Assembly: GCA_021810905.1 (NCBI GenBank)
Contig: JAJZQH010000003.1
Location: forward strand, 189,897-253,896
DNA length: 64,000 nucleotides
Direction of reading: 5' to 3'
Origin: a bacterium
GTDB lineage: Bacteria; UBA10199; 2-02-FULL-44-16; JAAZCA01
Both the position numbers and the translations under genes were made by a program. The notes under the pieces were generated by a model. It saw only the letters and a list, made by a program, of their open reading frames with translations. It was not told the DNA's origin and ran no database searches. This document shows, in pieces, positions 1,869 to 11,003 of the stretch. Numbering within the stretch: the stretch's first letter is position 1; every line of letters begins with the position of its first letter.

Positions 1869-3863
1869 TCACATCATCGGCCTGAATTCAACCGTGCACC
1901 TCGCTCCCGGATCTATAGCGCTTCCAGGCGGAGGGATCTGGTTCACGGCGACCCCGCTGCCCTTGAATTCCCAATCGATCTCCGCATCCTTTGCCGCAGC
2001 CAGGACTCCGCGCATCGTGAGTCCGCTGAAATCAGGCAGCCGCCAGGTTCCATCGTCATGCTGCACCGCCTGAGATGCATTTGATTCATCCGACGCGATT
2101 ACCGCCAGCTCCTCCACATCCGATGCGGCGGGCAAAGACTGCGCCGTCGTCACGAGCGTGGACGGAACCTTGAGATAATGAAGCGACTCCTCGACTATCG
2201 TCTTGAATATAGGAGCAGCCACCTGCCCTCCGTAATATGCACCGCGCGGTTCATCCATTCCCACGAATACGGCGATGCGCGGCGCGTCAGCGGGCGCAAA
2301 ACCGACGAATGACGCATAATAGCGGCCCTGTGCGTAACGGCCCGTTCGCGAATCGGCCTTCTGCGCAGTGCCCGTCTTCCCGGCCATCGGATACTCAAGG
2401 CTTGCGGCCAGCGTTCCTGTTCCGCCTTCCTGCGTCACTCTCCTGAGAAGGCCGGTCATCATCTTCGCCGCAGCCTCGCTTATCGGCTCGCTGACTATCT
2501 CGGGCGCGGCTTCGAAGAGGACCTCGTTGCGATCGTTGGTGATACGCTTCACCACGTAAGGCTTCATCAATTTTCCGCCGTTCGCTATAGCTGCGAAGGC
2601 CACCGCAGTCTGGAGCGGCGTGACCGCTATACCCTGGCCGAACGCGATGGTGGCGAACTGTATCTGCGACCAGCGCTGGCGCGGTGAGAGAATCCCGGCA
2701 TCCTCGCCGGGGAGATCGATGCCCGTCTTCCTGCCGAACCCGAACGACTTGATCGCCTGTTCAACCCGCTCCTCGCCCAGCTGCTGCTCCACCTTGTACG
2801 CGCCGATGTTGCTCGACACCCTGATTATGTCCGCAACGGACAATTTTCCGTGCGCGTGCGAGTCGCGGACGATGTTCGTCCCTATCTTGATGGCCCCGCC
2901 CTCGCAGTTGAATATATCCTCGGGTTTCACCGCCCCCGCACTGAGCGCCGCGGAGACGATTATCACCTTAAAGGTCGAACCCGGTTCGTGCGGCTCCACG
3001 ATAGCGCTGTTGCGCCAGCTCGAGAGCGGATAGCGCTCGTAGTCGTTGGGATCGAACGTAGGCATGTTCGATACCGCGAGTATAGCCCCTGTGCGGACGT
3101 CGACTACTACCGCCTGACCGGCGCGCGCGTTGGCGGTTGTTACTCCTTTTTCCAGCGCACGGTCGGCTATGTACTGCAGCGTCTTGTCGATCGTGAGCTC
3201 GACGTTCTTCTGCTCTGTTTCGCCCTCGTCTCCGTCGGGCGAGAGATAGAGATGCCCGCGCGCGTCGCGCTTCACGTCCCTGGATTCGGTTCGCTGCGAG
3301 AGTACGTCGTCGTACATGAGTTCGACGCCGCCCAAAGGCTCGGTGTCAAAGCCTACTGCGCCGAGCACGGAAGCGCCCACCGTGCCGTTTGGATAGGAGC
3401 GCCTGCCCTCCCTCATTGAATATACACCGTCGATATTGAGCGCCTTGATCTGCTGGGATTCAGCGATGCTTACCCTGCGCTTTACCCATACGAATTTTCG
3501 GTGCGACGTGAGCCTGTCGAACAGTTGCGAACGGTCCACGCGAAGCGCGGCAGCGAGTTTTTCAGCGGCATCGACCGGATTCTGTATTTCTCTCGGATTA
3601 GCAAAGATCGAATCCACCATCACGTCTATGGCCATCTCGCGGCCGGCGGCGTCGAGGATCTTTCCCCTCATACTGCTCTCGCGAACCGCGGTGCGATACT
3701 GCCTGAGCGCAACCTTTTCGATGTTCGCGTTATCCTTTAGATGGAACGCCACGGCGCGGCTTACGAGGATGCCGAAGAACAGGGCAAAAAAAGCGGCCAC
3801 CGCGTAGATGCGCTTTACGCCCCGCCCTTCGCCCCCGCGCTCTGATTTTTTGAATCTCGGCAT
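1869..3863 (-). CDS. ftsI: FtsI/PBP3-type peptidoglycan transpeptidase with a C-terminal PASTA domain
   Basis: Class B penicillin-binding protein of 664 residues that cross-links septal peptidoglycan in the periplasm. One N-terminal membrane anchor (about residues 20-38) is followed by a dimerisation domain and the transpeptidase domain. The active-site motifs STFK (Ser296), SSN (350-352) and KTGT (496-499) are all present. The last 55 or so residues (LPDFSGLTMRGVLAAA to the end) form one PASTA domain, found in some FtsI/SpoVD proteins. A TTG at 3869 would extend it by two codons; the ATG at 3863 is preferred. A long hairpin (3873-3946) ends just upstream of the start. Confidence 0.95.
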   Translation of the reverse strand: MPRFKKSERGGEGRGVKRIYAVAAFFALFFGILVSRAVAFHLKDNANIEKVALRQYRTAVRESSMRGKILDAAGREMAIDVMVDSIFANPREIQNPVDAAEKLAAALRVDRSQLFDRLTSHRKFVWVKRRVSIAESQQIKALNIDGVYSMREGRRSYPNGTVGASVLGAVGFDTEPLGGVELMYDDVLSQRTESRDVKRDARGHLYLSPDGDEGETEQKNVELTIDKTLQYIADRALEKGVTTANARAGQAVVVDVRTGAILAVSNMPTFDPNDYERYPLSSWRNSAIVEPHEPGSTFKVIIVSAALSAGAVKPEDIFNCEGGAIKIGTNIVRDSHAHGKLSVADIIRVSSNIGAYKVEQQLGEERVEQAIKSFGFGRKTGIDLPGEDAGILSPRQRWSQIQFATIAFGQGIAVTPLQTAVAFAAIANGGKLMKPYVVKRITNDRNEVLFEAAPEIVSEPISEAAAKMMTGLLRRVTQEGGTGTLAASLEYPMAGKTGTAQKADSRTGRYAQGRYYASFVGFAPADAPRIAVFVGMDEPRGAYYGGQVAAPIFKTIVEESLHYLKVPSTLVTTAQSLPAASDVEELAVIASDESNASQAVQHDDGTWRLPDFSGLTMRGVLAAAKDAEIDWEFKGSGVAVNQIPPPGSAIDPGARCTVEFRPMM

Positions 3864-3872
3864 CTTCAATCT

Positions 3873-3948: not shown

Positions 3949-4284
3949 TTACGGTTGTACTATCACCACCTCATCTCCATTCGGCAGCCTCATGCCGAAG
4001 CGCTGTACCGCCACCTCGGCCAGCCGTTCCGCCGACTTCTGCGCGGCGACTTCGGCCTCCAGCATGTCGCGCTGCTGCGCGAGCTCTGTCGTCTCCTTGC
4101 GTATGCGGCTGACTTCGTAGCCGAGCTGGATCACCTGTATTCGCGTCCACACGTAGAGCAGTGCGAGCACGACCACGACCGCGAGCAGGGTGAAGGCCTG
4201 CCTCAGATACCGGCGGCTCTCCGCCGCCTTCTTCGGGGCTATCGGCTGCCGCCTGACCGCTGTGATCATCGAGATAGAGCTCAT
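3949..4284 (-). CDS. ftsL: FtsL-like divisome protein
   Basis: Small bitopic protein of 111 residues. A cytoplasmic N-terminus with several basic residues precedes one membrane segment (about residues 32-48, LLAVVVVLALLYVW). A periplasmic heptad-like helix rich in Glu, Arg and Leu follows (VSRIRKETTELAQQRDMLEA). Size, topology and position between rsmH and ftsI fit FtsL, which bridges FtsB/FtsQ and the FtsWI synthase. FtsL diverges quickly, so topology and synteny carry the call. Its ATG overlaps the rsmH stop (ATGA), implying translational coupling. Confidence 0.88.
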   Translation of the reverse strand: MSSISMITAVRRQPIAPKKAAESRRYLRQAFTLLAVVVVLALLYVWTRIQVIQLGYEVSRIRKETTELAQQRDMLEAEVAAQKSAERLAEVAVQRFGMRLPNGDEVVIVQP

Positions 4285-5189
4285 GTTCGTTCAATCACTC
4301 GCATCTTGGCGCTCCTTGCGCGCGGGTTCGTTTTCACTTCTTCATCCGTTGGAACGATAGCCCTGCGCGACGGGAGCGTGTATTCGCCCTCGGCCGCAAT
4401 CCTGCGGAAGGAATGCTTTACGCGCCTGTCCTCCAGCGAGTGATAGCTGATGACGACCATCCTCCCGCCTTCGGAAAGAAGCGCCGGCGCTGATGTCAAA
4501 AAACGATCCAGTTCGCCCAGCTCGTCGTTCACAGCAATGCGGATCGCCTGAAATACTCGCGTAGCCGGGTGAATTCTCGATCGCCGCGCGATCGGAGGAA
4601 CGGCGCCCATAACCGCTTGGGCTAGTTCGCCCGTAGTCTTCACCCGTCTGCCGGCCAGCGCCCTGGCTATCCTGCCCGCGTATCTCTCCTCGCCGAATTC
4701 GCGCAGTATCTTCGAGAGCTCCTCTTCGTCCACCCTCTCCAGGAGATCTGCTGCGCTCTCACCGCACTCCGGGTCCATCCTCATGTCGAGCGGCGCATCG
4801 CTTCTGAAGCTGAAGCCCCGCCCTCCGCTGTCCAACTGATAGCTCGATACTCCAAGGTCCGCGAAGATCCCGTCCGCGCGCTCAATTTCCAATTCTTTCA
4901 GAATTGCTGCGATCTCTCCCATCTTGCCGCGCACTATCGTGGCTCGTGCGCCTTCCGTGGAGAGGCGCGATCTCGCCGCCTCTATCGCATCCGGATCGCG
5001 GTCGATGCCTATGAGCCTTCCGTCCGGCGCCGTGGCTTCGAGGATAAGAGCGGCATGGCCGCCGCCTCCGAGCGTTACGTCCACTATGAGCTTCCCGGGC
5101 AACGCCTTGAGGAGTGAAATCGCCTCGCCGGCCATCACCGGCCGGTGAAGGAATTCCGCCCGGCCGGCGCACTCCGACTCCCCGGTCAT
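4281..5189 (-). CDS. rsmH: RsmH, 16S rRNA (cytosine-1402-N4)-methyltransferase
   Basis: 302 residues from the ATG at 5189, matching family length; the open frame continues upstream but that part is Arg-rich out-of-frame-like sequence. Residues HRPVMAGEAISLL, the SAM-binding VTLGGGGHA, GIDRDPDAI, ADLGVSSYQLD and the C-terminal SYHSLEDRRVKHSF are RsmH signatures. It N4-methylates C1402 in the ribosomal P site. The start overlaps the STAS gene stop by ATGA and its stop overlaps ftsL by ATGA, so three genes are coupled in series. Confidence 0.96.
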   Translation of the reverse strand: MTGESECAGRAEFLHRPVMAGEAISLLKALPGKLIVDVTLGGGGHAALILEATAPDGRLIGIDRDPDAIEAARSRLSTEGARATIVRGKMGEIAAILKELEIERADGIFADLGVSSYQLDSGGRGFSFRSDAPLDMRMDPECGESAADLLERVDEEELSKILREFGEERYAGRIARALAGRRVKTTGELAQAVMGAVPPIARRSRIHPATRVFQAIRIAVNDELGELDRFLTSAPALLSEGGRMVVISYHSLEDRRVKHSFRRIAAEGEYTLPSRRAIVPTDEEVKTNPRARSAKMRVIERT

Positions 5190-5539
5190 TGAGGTTCTCC
5201 GCCGGGAATCTCGCCAAGAAAAGCAAGCAGCGCGTCCTCGACGGACGAATATATCTGCTCGTCGAGACCCATGGCCTCGAGAATGCGGCGCACGTAACCG
5301 CTGGCCGCGGCCATTTTGAGATCGCCGCCATCGCACTGAAATTCCACTATGCGCTCGGCGATGCGCTGCACCATCCGGTAATCGAGGTGTCGCAGGCCCT
5401 CGAAGTTGAGCACCACGTTGTGCTGATCGCACGCGGCGAGCGAATGCAGCAACTCATCCAGCACGTGCGCATTGCGCCGCGAGAGTTCGCCGTCGATACC
5501 GACGACCGAGATGTCGTGAAAGCGTTTGACCTCGAACAT
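5186..5539 (-). CDS. STAS-domain protein inserted in the dcw operon
   Basis: 117 residues, starting 2 bp after the mraZ stop and ending in an ATGA overlap with rsmH. The fold signature is that of STAS/SpoIIAA anti-anti-sigma proteins: an N-terminal beta-rich part, then NVVLNFEGLRHLDYRMVQRI and the helix VRRILEAMGLDEQIY, which matches the usual VRRVLxxxGLDxxF stretch. The usual phospho-acceptor DSSG is replaced by DYRM, so regulation by serine phosphorylation looks lost. No anti-sigma kinase or sigma factor lies nearby. A cell-wall or division related partner-binding role is inferred only from position. Confidence 0.8.
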   Translation of the reverse strand: MFEVKRFHDISVVGIDGELSRRNAHVLDELLHSLAACDQHNVVLNFEGLRHLDYRMVQRIAERIVEFQCDGGDLKMAAASGYVRRILEAMGLDEQIYSSVEDALLAFLGEIPGGEPQ

Positions 5540-5541
5540 AA

Positions 5542-5982
5542 TTACAATCCCAGATCGGCAAGTTTGGCGCCCATGCCGTCGAGCTTCGCGTGAGCGCCCT
5601 GGAAGACCTGATCCCACCGCTCGCGAGCCCAGAGCTCGAAGCGTCTCGACATGCCAACGATCACCACATCGCGGGTGAGCCCCGCGTATTCGCGCAGAGA
5701 CGGAGGGACGAGGATTCTGCCCTGCCTGTCTATCGGACACTCCGATGCAGCAGAAATGAAGACCCTCTGCAGAGCCTTGACCTCTTCCATGAACTGCGGA
5801 AGGGCCGCAACCTTTCGCTCCAGCTCCTGCCACTCGGCCGCTGTGTACGCCCAGAGGCAGCCGTCGAAATTCGTGACGATAAGGCGCTCGTCCGAGCCTG
5901 CGGCAAGGATCTCCCTGAAGTGCTTTGGCACCGAGATCCTGCCCTTTGAGTCTATCTGATGATGATATCGCCCACGAAACAT
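5542..5982 (-). CDS. mraZ: MraZ, transcriptional regulator of the dcw cluster
   Basis: 146 residues with two tandem AbrB/SpoVT-type halves. Each holds the conserved DxxxR element: DSKGRISVP near the N-terminus and DRQGRILVPPSLR about 60 residues later. MraZ forms a ring-shaped oligomer that binds repeated TGGGN boxes and represses its own operon. Candidate boxes with 10-bp phasing lie just upstream (5990-6024). First gene of the dcw operon, as in most bacteria. Confidence 0.96.
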   Translation of the reverse strand: MFRGRYHHQIDSKGRISVPKHFREILAAGSDERLIVTNFDGCLWAYTAAEWQELERKVAALPQFMEEVKALQRVFISAASECPIDRQGRILVPPSLREYAGLTRDVVIVGMSRRFELWARERWDQVFQGAHAKLDGMGAKLADLGL

Positions 5983-5989
5983 GTTTTAA

Positions 5990-6024
5990 TCCCATTATTT
6001 AGGGACTCGTACCACTTCATCCCA
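5990..6024 (-). promoter_or_regulatory. MraZ operator boxes
   Basis: On the minus strand TGGGA (6024-6020), TGGTA (6014-6010) and TGGGA (5994-5990) recur at 10- and 20-bp intervals, the phasing known for MraZ targets (TGGGN boxes with 5-nt spacers). They fall between the predicted transcription start near 6029 and the mraZ ATG, so bound MraZ would block early transcription. Confidence 0.75.
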
Positions 6025-6035
6025 CTTAATGGGCA

Positions 6036-6343: not shown

Positions 6344-7165
6344 TTATCGCATGATCTGCATTTGCCGGCGAAGCAAGGTAACAGCCACGACGATGAAGGC
6401 TGCACCCCAGAAAAAGATCGCCCCATTGAAGAAGATCGAAGCGCCCTCGATGGGGAGTTCGAATCCGCGGAGGTGATTGAAGAAGGTCCACGAATTATTG
6501 AGCACGTGACAGAGGATCGACGCCCACAAGGAACCGGTGACAGCAAAGACCCATCCGAAAAGGATTCCCAGGAGAATGTAGAGGTGAAAATACCACGGAT
6601 TGCCGTGCAGCGCCGCAAAGATCACTGCGGTGACGAATATCGCCATAGCGTTTCCCCAGCGCCAAGCAAGGGAGCCCTGACAGAATCCCCTGAAGAATAT
6701 CTCCTCGCAGACGCCCGGAACGAGACAGAGGATGAAAAATTTCCAGACGACAGCGGCCGGAGCAGAAGCGTTCATCATCAGATCGTACTGCGCCTCTATT
6801 TCACTTGGCAGAGGAAAAAAGTGCTCGCTCGCCGCAGTCGTAAAATCCATGACGATGACCGCGCCGCAGGTGAGCATGATTACAAGTGCGATCACAGCTG
6901 CGCCTGGAATGTTGAGCGGCATGACCCTGCGGCGTTCGAATCGCAACAACCATACGAGGGCAATCGGTACGCCCGCGATCGCAACGAGTTCGTTCACGAG
7001 CACGCCCGTGGAAATATGCTCCGCCCTGATAAGGAAACTCGCCGGTATCTGCAGGGCCGATACCAGCGCCACTGCGAGGAATACCAGCGCGGGAGAAGGA
7101 ATCGTGGAGCCCGGCGTATAGAGGGCGCGGGCGAACGCTGCGAATCTTCCACAGGGTTGCATCAT
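6344..7165 (-). CDS. CPBP-family intramembrane metalloprotease
   Basis: 273 residues with about seven hydrophobic segments. The CPBP (Rce1/Abi) signature motifs are present: EEIFFRG after PGVC, then FAALHG, and the third motif LCHVLNNSW near the C-terminus. The glutamates and histidines are the presumed metal-site residues. Family members cleave prenylated or bacteriocin-like substrates in the membrane, or act in resistance; the substrate here is unknown. Its start overlaps the nitroreductase stop by ATGA, so the two are translationally coupled. Confidence 0.85.
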   Translation of the reverse strand: MMQPCGRFAAFARALYTPGSTIPSPALVFLAVALVSALQIPASFLIRAEHISTGVLVNELVAIAGVPIALVWLLRFERRRVMPLNIPGAAVIALVIMLTCGAVIVMDFTTAASEHFFPLPSEIEAQYDLMMNASAPAAVVWKFFILCLVPGVCEEIFFRGFCQGSLAWRWGNAMAIFVTAVIFAALHGNPWYFHLYILLGILFGWVFAVTGSLWASILCHVLNNSWTFFNHLRGFELPIEGASIFFNGAIFFWGAAFIVVAVTLLRRQMQIMR

Positions 7166-7785: not shown

Positions 7786-8700
7786 ATGAAGCACGCCCAC
7801 GCGCTGAAACCAGGCGACACCATCGGCATCGCGGCCCCCGCCAGCCCGTTCGACCGCCATGTTTTTCTGAAGGGCGTGCACGCGATAGAGCAGATGGGTT
7901 TCAAGGTCTTCTTCCGCAAGGATATCTTCGACCAGAACCGCTACTTCGCCGGCACGGATCAGCGCCGCGCGGATGAATTCATGGAGCTGATGACCGACCG
8001 CAATATCGCCGCGGTCATGTTCGCGCGCGGAGGATACGGCAGCCAGCGAGTGATCCCGCTGCTCAAGGCGGATCTGCTTCGTCAGCACGCGAAACCCGTG
8101 CTCGGATTTTCCGACGTCACGGCGCTGCTCGCGTTTTTGCGGCAGAGCGCGGGCGTCCCCACGTTCTACGCGCCGGTGGTGACGCAGCTCGGCCGCGAAC
8201 CGCATTCGATGACGATGGATTCTCTTTCGCGAGCGCTCACCACCGCGGGTCCGCTTGGCGCTATTGCTTCTTCAGGCGCGCGCTGCATGAAGCCGGGAAA
8301 TGCGCGCGGCCCGCTCGTCGGCGGTTGCCTCTCGCTCATCAATTCGAGCATGGGCACTCAGTACGAACTCGACACTTCGGGCGCGATCCTCTTCATCGAG
8401 GAGGTCGGCGAGAAGGTCTACGTGCTCGACAGGATGCTCACCCAGCTCAAGAACAGCGGCGCGATTGCAAAGGCAAACGCGGTCGTCTTCGGATCGCTCA
8501 AACTCCCGGACGGAGAAAAACACGACGTTAGCGCGATGCTCGCGGACGTCATGTCTGACTTCGAAGGGCCCGTCGTCACGGATTTTCCAGCCGGGCATTC
8601 GGATGAATTCGTAACCCTGCCGCTCGGCGCCGCCGCGGAACTCACGGCGGATGCGGGCGCTGAACCGATTCTCACGTTTACAGAGGGACTTCTTTCATGA
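7786..8700 (+). CDS. ldcA: LD-carboxypeptidase (peptidase S66), peptidoglycan recycling
   Basis: 304 residues, close to family length. LD-carboxypeptidase removes the terminal D-Ala from cytoplasmic murein tetrapeptide. The opening LKPGDTIGIAAPAS, the RGGYGSQR segment, the nucleophile elbow GFSD (Ser109), a glutamate in FIEEVGEK (205/206) and His271 in PAGHSDE give the Ser-Glu-His triad of the S66 family. The product tripeptide is the substrate of Mpl, encoded at 37655. MccF-like immunity proteins share this fold, but the context favours recycling. It overlaps the next gene by ATGA. Confidence 0.92.
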   Translation: MKHAHALKPGDTIGIAAPASPFDRHVFLKGVHAIEQMGFKVFFRKDIFDQNRYFAGTDQRRADEFMELMTDRNIAAVMFARGGYGSQRVIPLLKADLLRQHAKPVLGFSDVTALLAFLRQSAGVPTFYAPVVTQLGREPHSMTMDSLSRALTTAGPLGAIASSGARCMKPGNARGPLVGGCLSLINSSMGTQYELDTSGAILFIEEVGEKVYVLDRMLTQLKNSGAIAKANAVVFGSLKLPDGEKHDVSAMLADVMSDFEGPVVTDFPAGHSDEFVTLPLGAAAELTADAGAEPILTFTEGLLS

Positions 8701-9857
8701 ACAGACCTGTCGATGCAGCATTCAAAGAGGCGATCGCCCGAGGAGCTTTTCCCGCGGCAGACCTGCTGGTGGCGAAGAGGGGCGAGATCGTCTATTCCGC
8801 ACACTACGGAGACGCGAGGGAAGGCACCTACTTCGACATAGCCTCGCTCACGAAGCCCATATGCACGGCCACGCTCGCGATGCAGCTGGTGAAAGACGGG
8901 CTAATTAAACTCGATGACACCGTCTATCAATGGCTCGCGGGCGCCCGCCGCCACGAGCACCGCGAGATCACTGTGAGGATGCTGCTCAATCACACATCTG
9001 GGCTTCCGGCATGGCAGCCATACTATCGCGAGCTTCCCATCAGCCTCGTAGCGGCCGAGAGCGGAAAGAGGTTGATCATCGGCGAGTGCTTCAACGAAGA
9101 GCTCGTAGCGAAGCCAGGAGAGAAGACGATCTACAGCGACGTCGGTTACATCATCCTCGGCGAAATGATCGAGCAGGCAGGCCATGCTCCGCTGGACGCG
9201 CAGTTCCATGAGCGTATCGCAAAACCACTCAAGATGAACGATACGTTCTTCGTGCGCGTGAGCGGCCAGCAGATAAGCACGACCGCAAGGCGCACCACGA
9301 CGTCAGCCGACCAGCACGTGCCGACCCCGCGTCACGGCATACGCGGTGAACGAAGCGACAGAAAAGAGGGAGAGCACCGGCGATTCGCACCTACGGAAGA
9401 CTGCCCGTGGCGCGATCACGTGATCCACGGCGAGGTGCACGATCAGAACGCATACGCATTGGGGGGAGTCGCGGGGCACGCGGGTCTCTTCTCCACGGCG
9501 ATCGACATCCATCGCTTCACGGTAGAACTCACGCGCTGCTACAGAGGCGACTCCAACTGGATACCTCAAGACATCGTGCGTGAATTCCTGCAGCACAACA
9601 CGGAGAAACCGGAGGGTGAGGCGTTCGTCCTCGGCTGGAACCGTCCCTCGAGAAAAAATTCCTCTTCAGGGCACGGCTTCTCGCCGAATTCGATAGGACA
9701 TCTCGGCTATACCGGCTGCTCCATCTGGATCGACCTCACAAACGACTTCTGGGTGATCCTGCTCACCAACCGCATCCACCCCTCTTCCACCAACGAAAAG
9801 ATAAAGGCGTTCCGTCCGAAGATCCACGATCTGGTCTACGATGAATTCATAGCGTAA
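8697..9857 (+). CDS. Serine hydrolase of the class C beta-lactamase/PBP-like family
   Basis: 386 residues without an evident signal peptide. SLTK (Ser50, Lys53) is the catalytic SxxK pair and YSD (146-148) stands at the YxN position. The HTSGLPAW block is typical of PF00144 proteins. Family members include D-aminopeptidases, esterases and DD-peptidases. A probable role on D-amino-acid peptides or cell-wall fragments is inferred from coupling (ATGA) to the LD-carboxypeptidase gene. The segment at about 190-245 is unusually rich in Arg, Thr and His and may be an insertion. Confidence 0.88.
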   Translation: MNRPVDAAFKEAIARGAFPAADLLVAKRGEIVYSAHYGDAREGTYFDIASLTKPICTATLAMQLVKDGLIKLDDTVYQWLAGARRHEHREITVRMLLNHTSGLPAWQPYYRELPISLVAAESGKRLIIGECFNEELVAKPGEKTIYSDVGYIILGEMIEQAGHAPLDAQFHERIAKPLKMNDTFFVRVSGQQISTTARRTTTSADQHVPTPRHGIRGERSDRKEGEHRRFAPTEDCPWRDHVIHGEVHDQNAYALGGVAGHAGLFSTAIDIHRFTVELTRCYRGDSNWIPQDIVREFLQHNTEKPEGEAFVLGWNRPSRKNSSSGHGFSPNSIGHLGYTGCSIWIDLTNDFWVILLTNRIHPSSTNEKIKAFRPKIHDLVYDEFIA

Positions 9858-9878
9858 GGGCGCACTGCAGGAGGACGT

Positions 9879-11003
9879 ATGTTGCGGATCGCATCGATGA
9901 AGGCCGTTTTCATCCTGTCACTGCTCGCCATGATTTCAGGATGTTCCAATCTGACGACGTCGGAGAGCACCATCAACACGTGGGTCACGAAGTTCGGCGA
10001 AACTGCGAAAATGAATGCCGGCGCGCAGAACGTGGAGAGCGACGCCTTCTTCCTGGTTAAATTCGGCGCCCAGTTGACGGGAGATGTCTTCATTGTCAAG
10101 GGGAGCAGGGCCGACCGCACGCTCACTACCTTTGACGCAGCCACCTGCGATATTGCCAACGAAGTCCCGTCGAACACCTTCAGTTGCAGCACCTCCGCGT
10201 GCACGATCGAGCCCGTCTCGTTTTTCCATCCATCAACGGACTACAGCATCTGCGTGCTTCCTTTCCGGTTGAAAGACCTGAATTATCCAGGATTCACCTT
10301 GTCCTTCACCACCGCGTCCGGAACTCTCGCCGGCGACGGGTGCACGGATCCTTCGATCGTGGTAAAGCCGTTCATCACGCACCTGCCTTTTGACCTCGGC
10401 ACGGTGGGAAAGATCGGAAAGTTCCGGAGCTGCACGAGCCAGGGATCGCTGCCGGCAACGACAGAGCCGGCGTCCGCCCATACACATGTCATCTATGGTC
10501 TTTCCAGTCAGGTCGGCTGCAAGGAGGGGATCCCTGTCTACGCTCCCTTTGACGGCGTCATCGCCGATATCTCCACGACGCCGCAGAGCGGTCCCTGCGA
10601 CCCCGCCATCGGAAGCGACGGCTATATCATGCTCTATCCCGACGGCGCCTATCGATATCAATTCTACCTGAACAATGTCATTCCCGCCGCCGGACTCAAG
10701 GAAGGCGATGCGGTCACGGCGGGACAGCAGCTGGGCACAGTGACCCTTATTTCCACTGATCGATACTGGGAGATCGGCGTACGGCCTTACTCTGTGGCTA
10801 CCGGCGAATCCGAGATGTGCAACATCGGCTTGTTCTTCAACGATGCCGTGGCTGCACAGCTCAACCAGCACGGCATCAACGCCTCGGCCCTCAGCTTCAC
10901 CAAGGCGTATCGTGAGGCGCATCCGTGTGAAATCGCACCCTCCATCAACACTTTCTCCGGGGCCCCGGATGGAGACAACAATTACGTCGTACCCACGCCC
11001 TGA
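9879..11003 (+). CDS. Lipoprotein with an Ig-like domain and a degenerate M23-like domain
   Basis: 374 residues; CAGGAGG 6 nt before the ATG supports this start. The signal ends in a lipobox (LLAMISGC), so it is probably a lipid-anchored envelope protein. Residues about 35-145 resemble SbsA-type bacterial Ig-like domains. Residues about 200-310 (GIPVYAPFDGVIADIS, GYIMLYPDG, LKEGDAVTAGQQLGTV) follow the M23/LytM fold. The histidines of the second zinc motif (HxHFE in active enzymes) are replaced in RYWEIGV, so it is probably not an active endopeptidase. It follows the two peptidase genes by 21 bp. Confidence 0.7.
   Translation: MLRIASMKAVFILSLLAMISGCSNLTTSESTINTWVTKFGETAKMNAGAQNVESDAFFLVKFGAQLTGDVFIVKGSRADRTLTTFDAATCDIANEVPSNTFSCSTSACTIEPVSFFHPSTDYSICVLPFRLKDLNYPGFTLSFTTASGTLAGDGCTDPSIVVKPFITHLPFDLGTVGKIGKFRSCTSQGSLPATTEPASAHTHVIYGLSSQVGCKEGIPVYAPFDGVIADISTTPQSGPCDPAIGSDGYIMLYPDGAYRYQFYLNNVIPAAGLKEGDAVTAGQQLGTVTLISTDRYWEIGVRPYSVATGESEMCNIGLFFNDAVAAQLNQHGINASALSFTKAYREAHPCEIAPSINTFSGAPDGDNNYVVPTP

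What the first reader, a model, noticed from the sequence alone, without database searches (positions are those of the whole stretch)
5186..5539. STAS protein lacking the phospho-serine sits inside the dcw operon
The operon reads mraZ, STAS gene, rsmH. The STAS gene starts 2 bp after mraZ and overlaps rsmH by ATGA, so it is firmly built in. STAS proteins normally work with anti-sigma kinases through a DSSG serine, but here this reads DYRM and no partner is present. It may be a division or cell-wall factor that binds a partner without phosphorylation.
Basis: partly seen in the sequence, partly recalled or inferred. Interest (0 to 1): 0.72.

Follow-up and report, generated by a model that had tools for sequence, protein, structure and literature searches.

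The report
Tyrosine-STAS protein built into division operon
A small binding protein of the family that usually acts as a phosphorylation-controlled switch has lost its phosphorylation site and is instead fixed between two genes of the cell-division operon in many little-studied bacterial groups, which points to an undescribed regulator of cell division.

Summary
Window 5186-5539(-) encodes a 117-aa STAS-only protein, 2 bp after mraZ and overlapping rsmH by ATGA, in an otherwise ordinary dcw cluster that runs to ftsZ. The SpoIIAA phospho-serine (Ser58) aligns with Tyr54.

It is not a local oddity. In the window's class (46 genomes), 34 of 41 resolvable mraZ-rsmH junctions carry it. So do 16 genomes of ten further families, including Hydrogenedentota, Poribacteria and Abyssobacteria. 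None of 53 such proteins has Ser/Thr at the site (44 Tyr, 4 Phe, 3 Leu, 2 Val), against 40 of 41 STAS proteins from elsewhere. With that column removed, the 53 still form one side of a branch (92/87). dN/dS is about 0.02-0.1.

It does not depend on an anti-sigma kinase. Six genomes 93-100% complete carry it with no detectable kinase and no canonical STAS. Seven genomes lacking it keep both. The window genome has its own canonical STAS-kinase-phosphatase cassette elsewhere.

Best reading: a phosphorylation-independent STAS adaptor, co-expressed from the apparently MraZ-controlled dcw promoter, binding a partner through the face around Tyr54. The partner is unknown (MraZ, RsmH or a division protein). 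I found no published description. New variant of a known kind.

The parts
5186..5539 (-). dcw-STAS gene: 117-aa STAS-only protein
   Evidence: PF01740 52.9 bits; relatives between mraZ and rsmH in 34 of 41 resolvable class genomes
5378..5380 (-). codon TAC for Tyr54, at the position of the SpoIIAA phospho-acceptor Ser58, N-cap of helix alpha-2
   Evidence: alignment to 1auz/1th8; helix 54-69 in model m88e2cb7752c9
5542..5982 (-). mraZ, dcw transcriptional repressor, 2 bp upstream of the STAS gene
   Evidence: PF02381 115.6 bits; TIGR00242 over cut-off
4281..5189 (-). rsmH (mraW), 16S rRNA methyltransferase; start overlaps the STAS stop by ATGA
   Evidence: PF01795 332 bits; TIGR00006 over cut-off
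3949..4284 (-). ftsL
   Evidence: TIGR02209 over cut-off
1869..3869 (-). ftsI (penicillin-binding transpeptidase with PASTA domain)
   Evidence: PF00905, PF03717, PF03793
345..1841 (-). murE-type Mur ligase
   Evidence: PF08245, PF02875
6036..6064 (-). candidate mraZ promoter: TTGACG (6064-6059), 17-bp spacer, TTATTT (6041-6036)
   Evidence: sequence; TTGAC conserved upstream of mraZ in many class relatives
5991..6025 (-). candidate MraZ boxes: TGGGA and TGGTA 10 bp apart, plus a TGGGAT nearer mraZ
   Evidence: sequence and comparison with relatives; binding not tested

Best explanation
The gene encodes a member of one ancient, vertically maintained STAS-only family (call it dcw-STAS) that is a fixed component of the division and cell-wall operon in several bacterial phyla. 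It is made together with MraZ, RsmH and FtsL from the apparently MraZ-controlled promoter. It works as an always-on protein-binding adaptor: the alpha-1/alpha-2 face, which in SpoIIAA and MlaB binds the partner and carries the phospho-acceptor position, here carries a conserved tyrosine or another bulky side chain. Binding is therefore set by amounts (operon expression) or by partner state rather than by Ser/Thr phosphorylation. The most likely partner is a product of the same operon, MraZ or RsmH first, then a cytoplasmic division protein. Shown: operon position, conservation, loss of the phospho-site, independence from the kinase; fold by prediction. Inferred: binding mode. Guess: partner.
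For: Position between mraZ and rsmH in 34 class genomes and in 16 genomes of ten other families. Named cases: Hydrogenedentota, Poribacteria, Abyssobacteria. No Ser/Thr at the site in 53 of 53, against 40 of 41 with Ser/Thr among other STAS proteins. One side of a branch with the site column removed, support 92/87. Purifying selection: dN 0.05-0.16 against dS 0.8-3. Kinase-independent: G014, G019, G024, G029, G034 and G016 carry dcw-STAS, no HATPase_c_2 hit at E<=1e-8 and no second STAS. SpoIIAA-like predicted fold, TM 0.76 to 1th8_B, with Tyr54 starting alpha-2. MlaB precedent: a STAS protein that binds an ATPase with this site at the centre of the interface (PMC7367683). TTGAC and MraZ-like boxes upstream.
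Against: No direct evidence for any partner. The gene is lost in seven class genomes with no matching change in conserved MraZ, RsmH or FtsL columns, so it is not essential to the operon, and no co-evolution signal favours MraZ or RsmH. Deep tree support is below the tool's star threshold.
Confidence: 0.6

Rival explanations
1. An anti-sigma factor antagonist that has become constitutive: it still binds a SpoIIAB/RsbW-type anti-sigma kinase but can no longer be phosphorylated off, so it keeps a sigma factor free.
For: Nearest solved and family relatives are SpoIIAA-type antagonists. The window genome has one SpoIIAB/RsbW-type kinase in a canonical cassette.
Against: Six near-complete genomes have dcw-STAS but no detectable kinase or canonical STAS. 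The canonical STAS genes of the class lie beside their own kinase. Seven genomes keep the kinase without dcw-STAS. Score is below the NCBIfam antagonist cut-off (38.5 against 53.45).
Confidence: 0.1
2. A tyrosine phospho-switch: Tyr54 replaces Ser58 and is phosphorylated by a bacterial tyrosine kinase linked to envelope synthesis.
For: Tyr in 44 of 53 proteins, one of the most conserved positions.
Against: Phe, Leu or Val replaces it in 9 of 53. No tyrosine kinase is linked to the operon; kinase presence elsewhere was not searched.
Confidence: 0.08
3. A stand-in for MlaB: it stabilises the MlaF ATPase of the lipid transporter, which in this genome has no MlaB of its own.
For: The genome has two MlaE genes, and no STAS protein other than this one and the canonical one. 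MlaB shows that STAS proteins can bind ABC ATPases.
Against: MlaE is in all 46 class genomes, including the seven without dcw-STAS. The gene is not linked to mla in any locus read. MlaB lacks the C-terminal helix that is predicted here.
Confidence: 0.08
4. A passive passenger: a gene caught in the operon by chance and kept for no division-related reason.
For: Lost several times without other visible change in the operon.
Against: Strong purifying selection, the same position across several phyla and probably one origin.
Confidence: 0.07

Closest known systems
SpoIIAA / RsbV anti-sigma factor antagonists (PF01740, TIGR00377)
   Same: STAS-only protein of about 117 aa; same predicted fold (TM 0.76 to 1th8_B); nearly full-length alignment
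   Different: Phospho-Ser replaced by Tyr; sits in dcw, not beside a kinase; below the TIGR00377 cut-off; occurs without any detectable kinase
MlaB (STAS subunit of MlaFEDB)
   Same: STAS-only protein that acts by binding, with no demonstrated phosphorylation at the equivalent site, which lies in the partner interface (PMC7367683)
   Different: MlaB keeps Thr52, is encoded with mlaFEDC and lacks the final helix; dcw-STAS has Tyr54, is in dcw and has the helix
Stressosome STAS proteins RsbS/RsbR
   Same: STAS fold; 6jhk (RsbS) TM 0.78
   Different: RsbS/RsbR are phosphorylated on a conserved Ser/Thr (PMC7367683) and work with RsbT; no such linkage here
Non-canonical STAS-only regulators (SypA, BtrV, RbaV; PMC8256260)
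   Same: Outputs other than a known sigma factor
   Different: Those described keep the conserved serine(s) and partner-switch kinases

Membership tests
STAS domain superfamily (PF01740) | Profile match over the curated cut-off and STAS fold | tested here: met
   52.9 bits against 22.6; predicted fold pLDDT 83, TM 0.76 to SpoIIAA
Anti-sigma factor antagonist (SpoIIAA/RsbV type) | Phosphorylatable Ser/Thr at the SpoIIAA Ser58 position | tested here: not met
   Tyr54; 0 of 53 family members have Ser/Thr
Anti-sigma factor antagonist (SpoIIAA/RsbV type) | Cognate HATPase_c_2 anti-sigma kinase linked or at least present | tested here: not met
   Not linked; absent at E<=1e-8 from six near-complete genomes that carry the gene
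Anti-sigma factor antagonist (SpoIIAA/RsbV type) | TIGR00377 score over the curated cut-off | tested here: not met
   38.5 against 53.45 bits
Anti-sigma factor antagonist (SpoIIAA/RsbV type) | Physical binding of an anti-sigma factor | not testable with these tools
   needs a binding assay
MlaB | Encoded with mlaFED(C) | tested here: not met
   In dcw; the Mla locus in L190 has no STAS gene
MlaB | Ser/Thr at the Thr52 position | tested here: not met
   Tyr54
MlaB | Binds MlaF | not testable with these tools
   no complex prediction available
Stressosome RsbS/RsbR | Partner RsbT and RsbR/RsbS companions | not tested
   RsbT family not searched separately; own genome has only two STAS proteins
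dcw-STAS (the group described here) | STAS gene between mraZ and rsmH, same strand | tested here: met
dcw-STAS (the group described here) | Groups with other dcw-located STAS rather than with canonical STAS of its own genome | tested here: met
   class clade 93/96; all 53 together 92/87

The most novel reading that the evidence does not exclude
dcw-STAS is an ancient part of the division operon in about seven phylum-level groups: a regulator that binds MraZ (or acts on the MraZ-RsmH axis) and tunes the repressor by stoichiometry, a case of a STAS protein controlling a DNA-binding division regulator rather than a sigma factor or transporter.
Probability: 0.22. Interest if true: 0.85.

Novelty: new variant of a known kind. 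Interest (0 to 1): 0.64.

Why it matters
The dcw cluster is among the best-studied operons in bacteria, and what controls MraZ is still open. A conserved extra gene at its head, present in several uncultured phyla and described in none of the open-access papers searched, is a ready lead to a missing regulator. It also shows a STAS lineage that has given up the phospho-switch thought to be general for the fold, while keeping the same residue position under strong constraint.

Tried and rejected
Anti-sigma kinase as required partner: rejected by the double dissociation. MlaB stand-in: MlaE present in all 46 class genomes regardless of dcw-STAS. Co-evolution of MraZ, RsmH or FtsL conserved columns with loss of the STAS gene: no signal. 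Which neighbour is tied more closely, by intergenic distances: the STAS-rsmH junction looks tighter, but rsmH starts were picked nearest the STAS stop, so this is biased and not used. Structured RNA in the long mraZ-STAS gap of G250 and in the window: no Rfam match. Viral relatives: none.

Full report
What is there. The minus strand of the window reads mraZ (5982-5542), a 117-codon STAS gene (5539-5186), rsmH (5189-4281), ftsL, ftsI, murE. Outside the window the same contig continues with murF, mraY, murD, murC, ddl, ftsQ, ftsA and ftsZ. The STAS gene is thus the one extra gene at the head of an otherwise textbook dcw cluster. Upstream of mraZ lie TTGACG, a 17-bp spacer, TTATTT and TGGG-type repeats; the TTGAC and paired TGGGA/TGGTA repeats recur upstream of mraZ in many relatives. 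These resemble the MraZ boxes through which MraZ represses its own operon (MraZ as repressor: PMC8475190; the TGGG form of the box is from my own knowledge). Binding was not tested.

The phospho-site. phmmer against solved structures aligns SpoIIAA FMD-Ser58-SG with HLD-Tyr54-RM. The AlphaFold2 model, made from the window protein plus six database loci, has mean pLDDT 83 with Tyr54 as the first residue of helix alpha-2. Foldseek finds SpoIIAA in its kinase complex as best match (TM 0.76). So the fold is predicted intact and the switch residue is exchanged.

Is it conserved? The genome search over the class (46 genomes, the only class seen in its phylum here) and the flanks show the STAS gene between mraZ and rsmH in 34 genomes and mraZ directly followed by rsmH in 7 (G006, G013, G023, G028, G033, G038, G042). 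Five genomes could not be resolved. Two broad samples of about 385 genomes each, largely overlapping, with MraZ and RsmH checked in the flanks, add 16 genomes in ten family codes: f27, f45, f49, f85, f90, f151, f160, f203, f235, f264. A named scan identifies Hydrogenedentota (five loci), Poribacteria and Abyssobacteria. dN/dS is about 0.02-0.1 in four pairs, although dS is near saturation in some.

One family, not repeated recruitment. With the phospho-site column removed, the class dcw proteins form one clade (93/96) apart from the canonical STAS of the same genomes. After adding six more sequences, all 53 dcw-located proteins lie on one side of a branch against 41 others, support 92/87, up from 70/64 in the smaller set. 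The alignment is short, so this is good but not conclusive. The others were drawn from the best profile hits, not at random. At the site the dcw set has 44 Tyr, 4 Phe, 3 Leu, 2 Val and no Ser/Thr; the others have 38 Ser, 2 Thr, 1 Ala.

Kinase independence. The window genome has exactly two STAS proteins. The other one, on contig C8, has IDSMG and is followed by a HATPase_c_2 kinase and a SpoIIE phosphatase, next to a sigma-54-type regulator. Across the class, dcw-STAS and this module dissociate both ways. G014 (100% complete), G019 (98), G024 (95), G029 (95), G034 (96) and G016 (93) have dcw-STAS but no kinase at E<=1e-8 and no second STAS; all seven dcw-STAS-minus genomes have a canonical STAS match and a kinase. 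Several of the six belong to one sub-clade, so the number of independent losses is small. A very divergent kinase could be missed at this threshold.

How it most likely works. STAS-only proteins act by binding, and phosphorylation at the alpha-2 N-cap breaks the contact. In MlaB the equivalent Thr52 sits at the centre of the MlaF interface, which is made by the helical face, without proven phosphorylation (PMC7367683). A conserved Tyr, or a bulky hydrophobic residue, at this spot fits a binding contact that is not switched by Ser/Thr kinases. Co-expression with MraZ, RsmH and FtsL suggests that amount sets activity. The partner is not identified; loss of the gene leaves no mark on conserved MraZ, RsmH or FtsL columns, so I give no single partner more than about one chance in four.

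Against what is known. It is a STAS protein but fails three tests for an anti-sigma antagonist (site, kinase, TIGR00377 cut-off) and two for MlaB (site, operon). A review of STAS-only proteins centres on the conserved serine; the words tyrosine and division do not occur in its main text (PMC8256260). In the open-access library only four papers hold both 'STAS' and 'mraZ', none of them about this by title and term counts; subscription literature was not searchable. Verdict: real, conserved, undescribed as far as could be checked, a new variant of a known kind.

Noticed in passing
L001 / G000 contig C8 29614-34629: Complete canonical partner-switch cassette in the same genome: sigma-54-type regulator, STAS with IDSMG, HATPase_c_2 kinase, SpoIIE phosphatase; not detected in a sub-clade of the class that keeps dcw-STAS.
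   Followed up: partly
window 6344-7165 (-): CAAX-type protease (Rce1-like) gene lies immediately upstream of mraZ on the same strand, separated by about 360 bp that hold the candidate promoter.
   Followed up: no
window 7786-11003 (+): An S66 LD-carboxypeptidase, a beta-lactamase-family serine hydrolase and a weak M23 peptidase match lie in a row close to the dcw cluster: possible peptidoglycan recycling or remodelling genes.
   Followed up: no
L203 1100-1500 (genome G250): 375-bp gap between mraZ and the STAS gene with GC-rich hairpin-like sequence; no Rfam match.
   Followed up: partly
L190 and L191 (G000 contigs C4 and C16): Two Mla-type loci (MlaE with neighbouring ABC-ATPase-like and MlaD-like genes) without any MlaB found in the genome.
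   Followed up: partly
G022:C86 and G044:C234: MlaE matches lie in open frames of about 537 aa, twice the usual length: possible fusion proteins.
   Followed up: no
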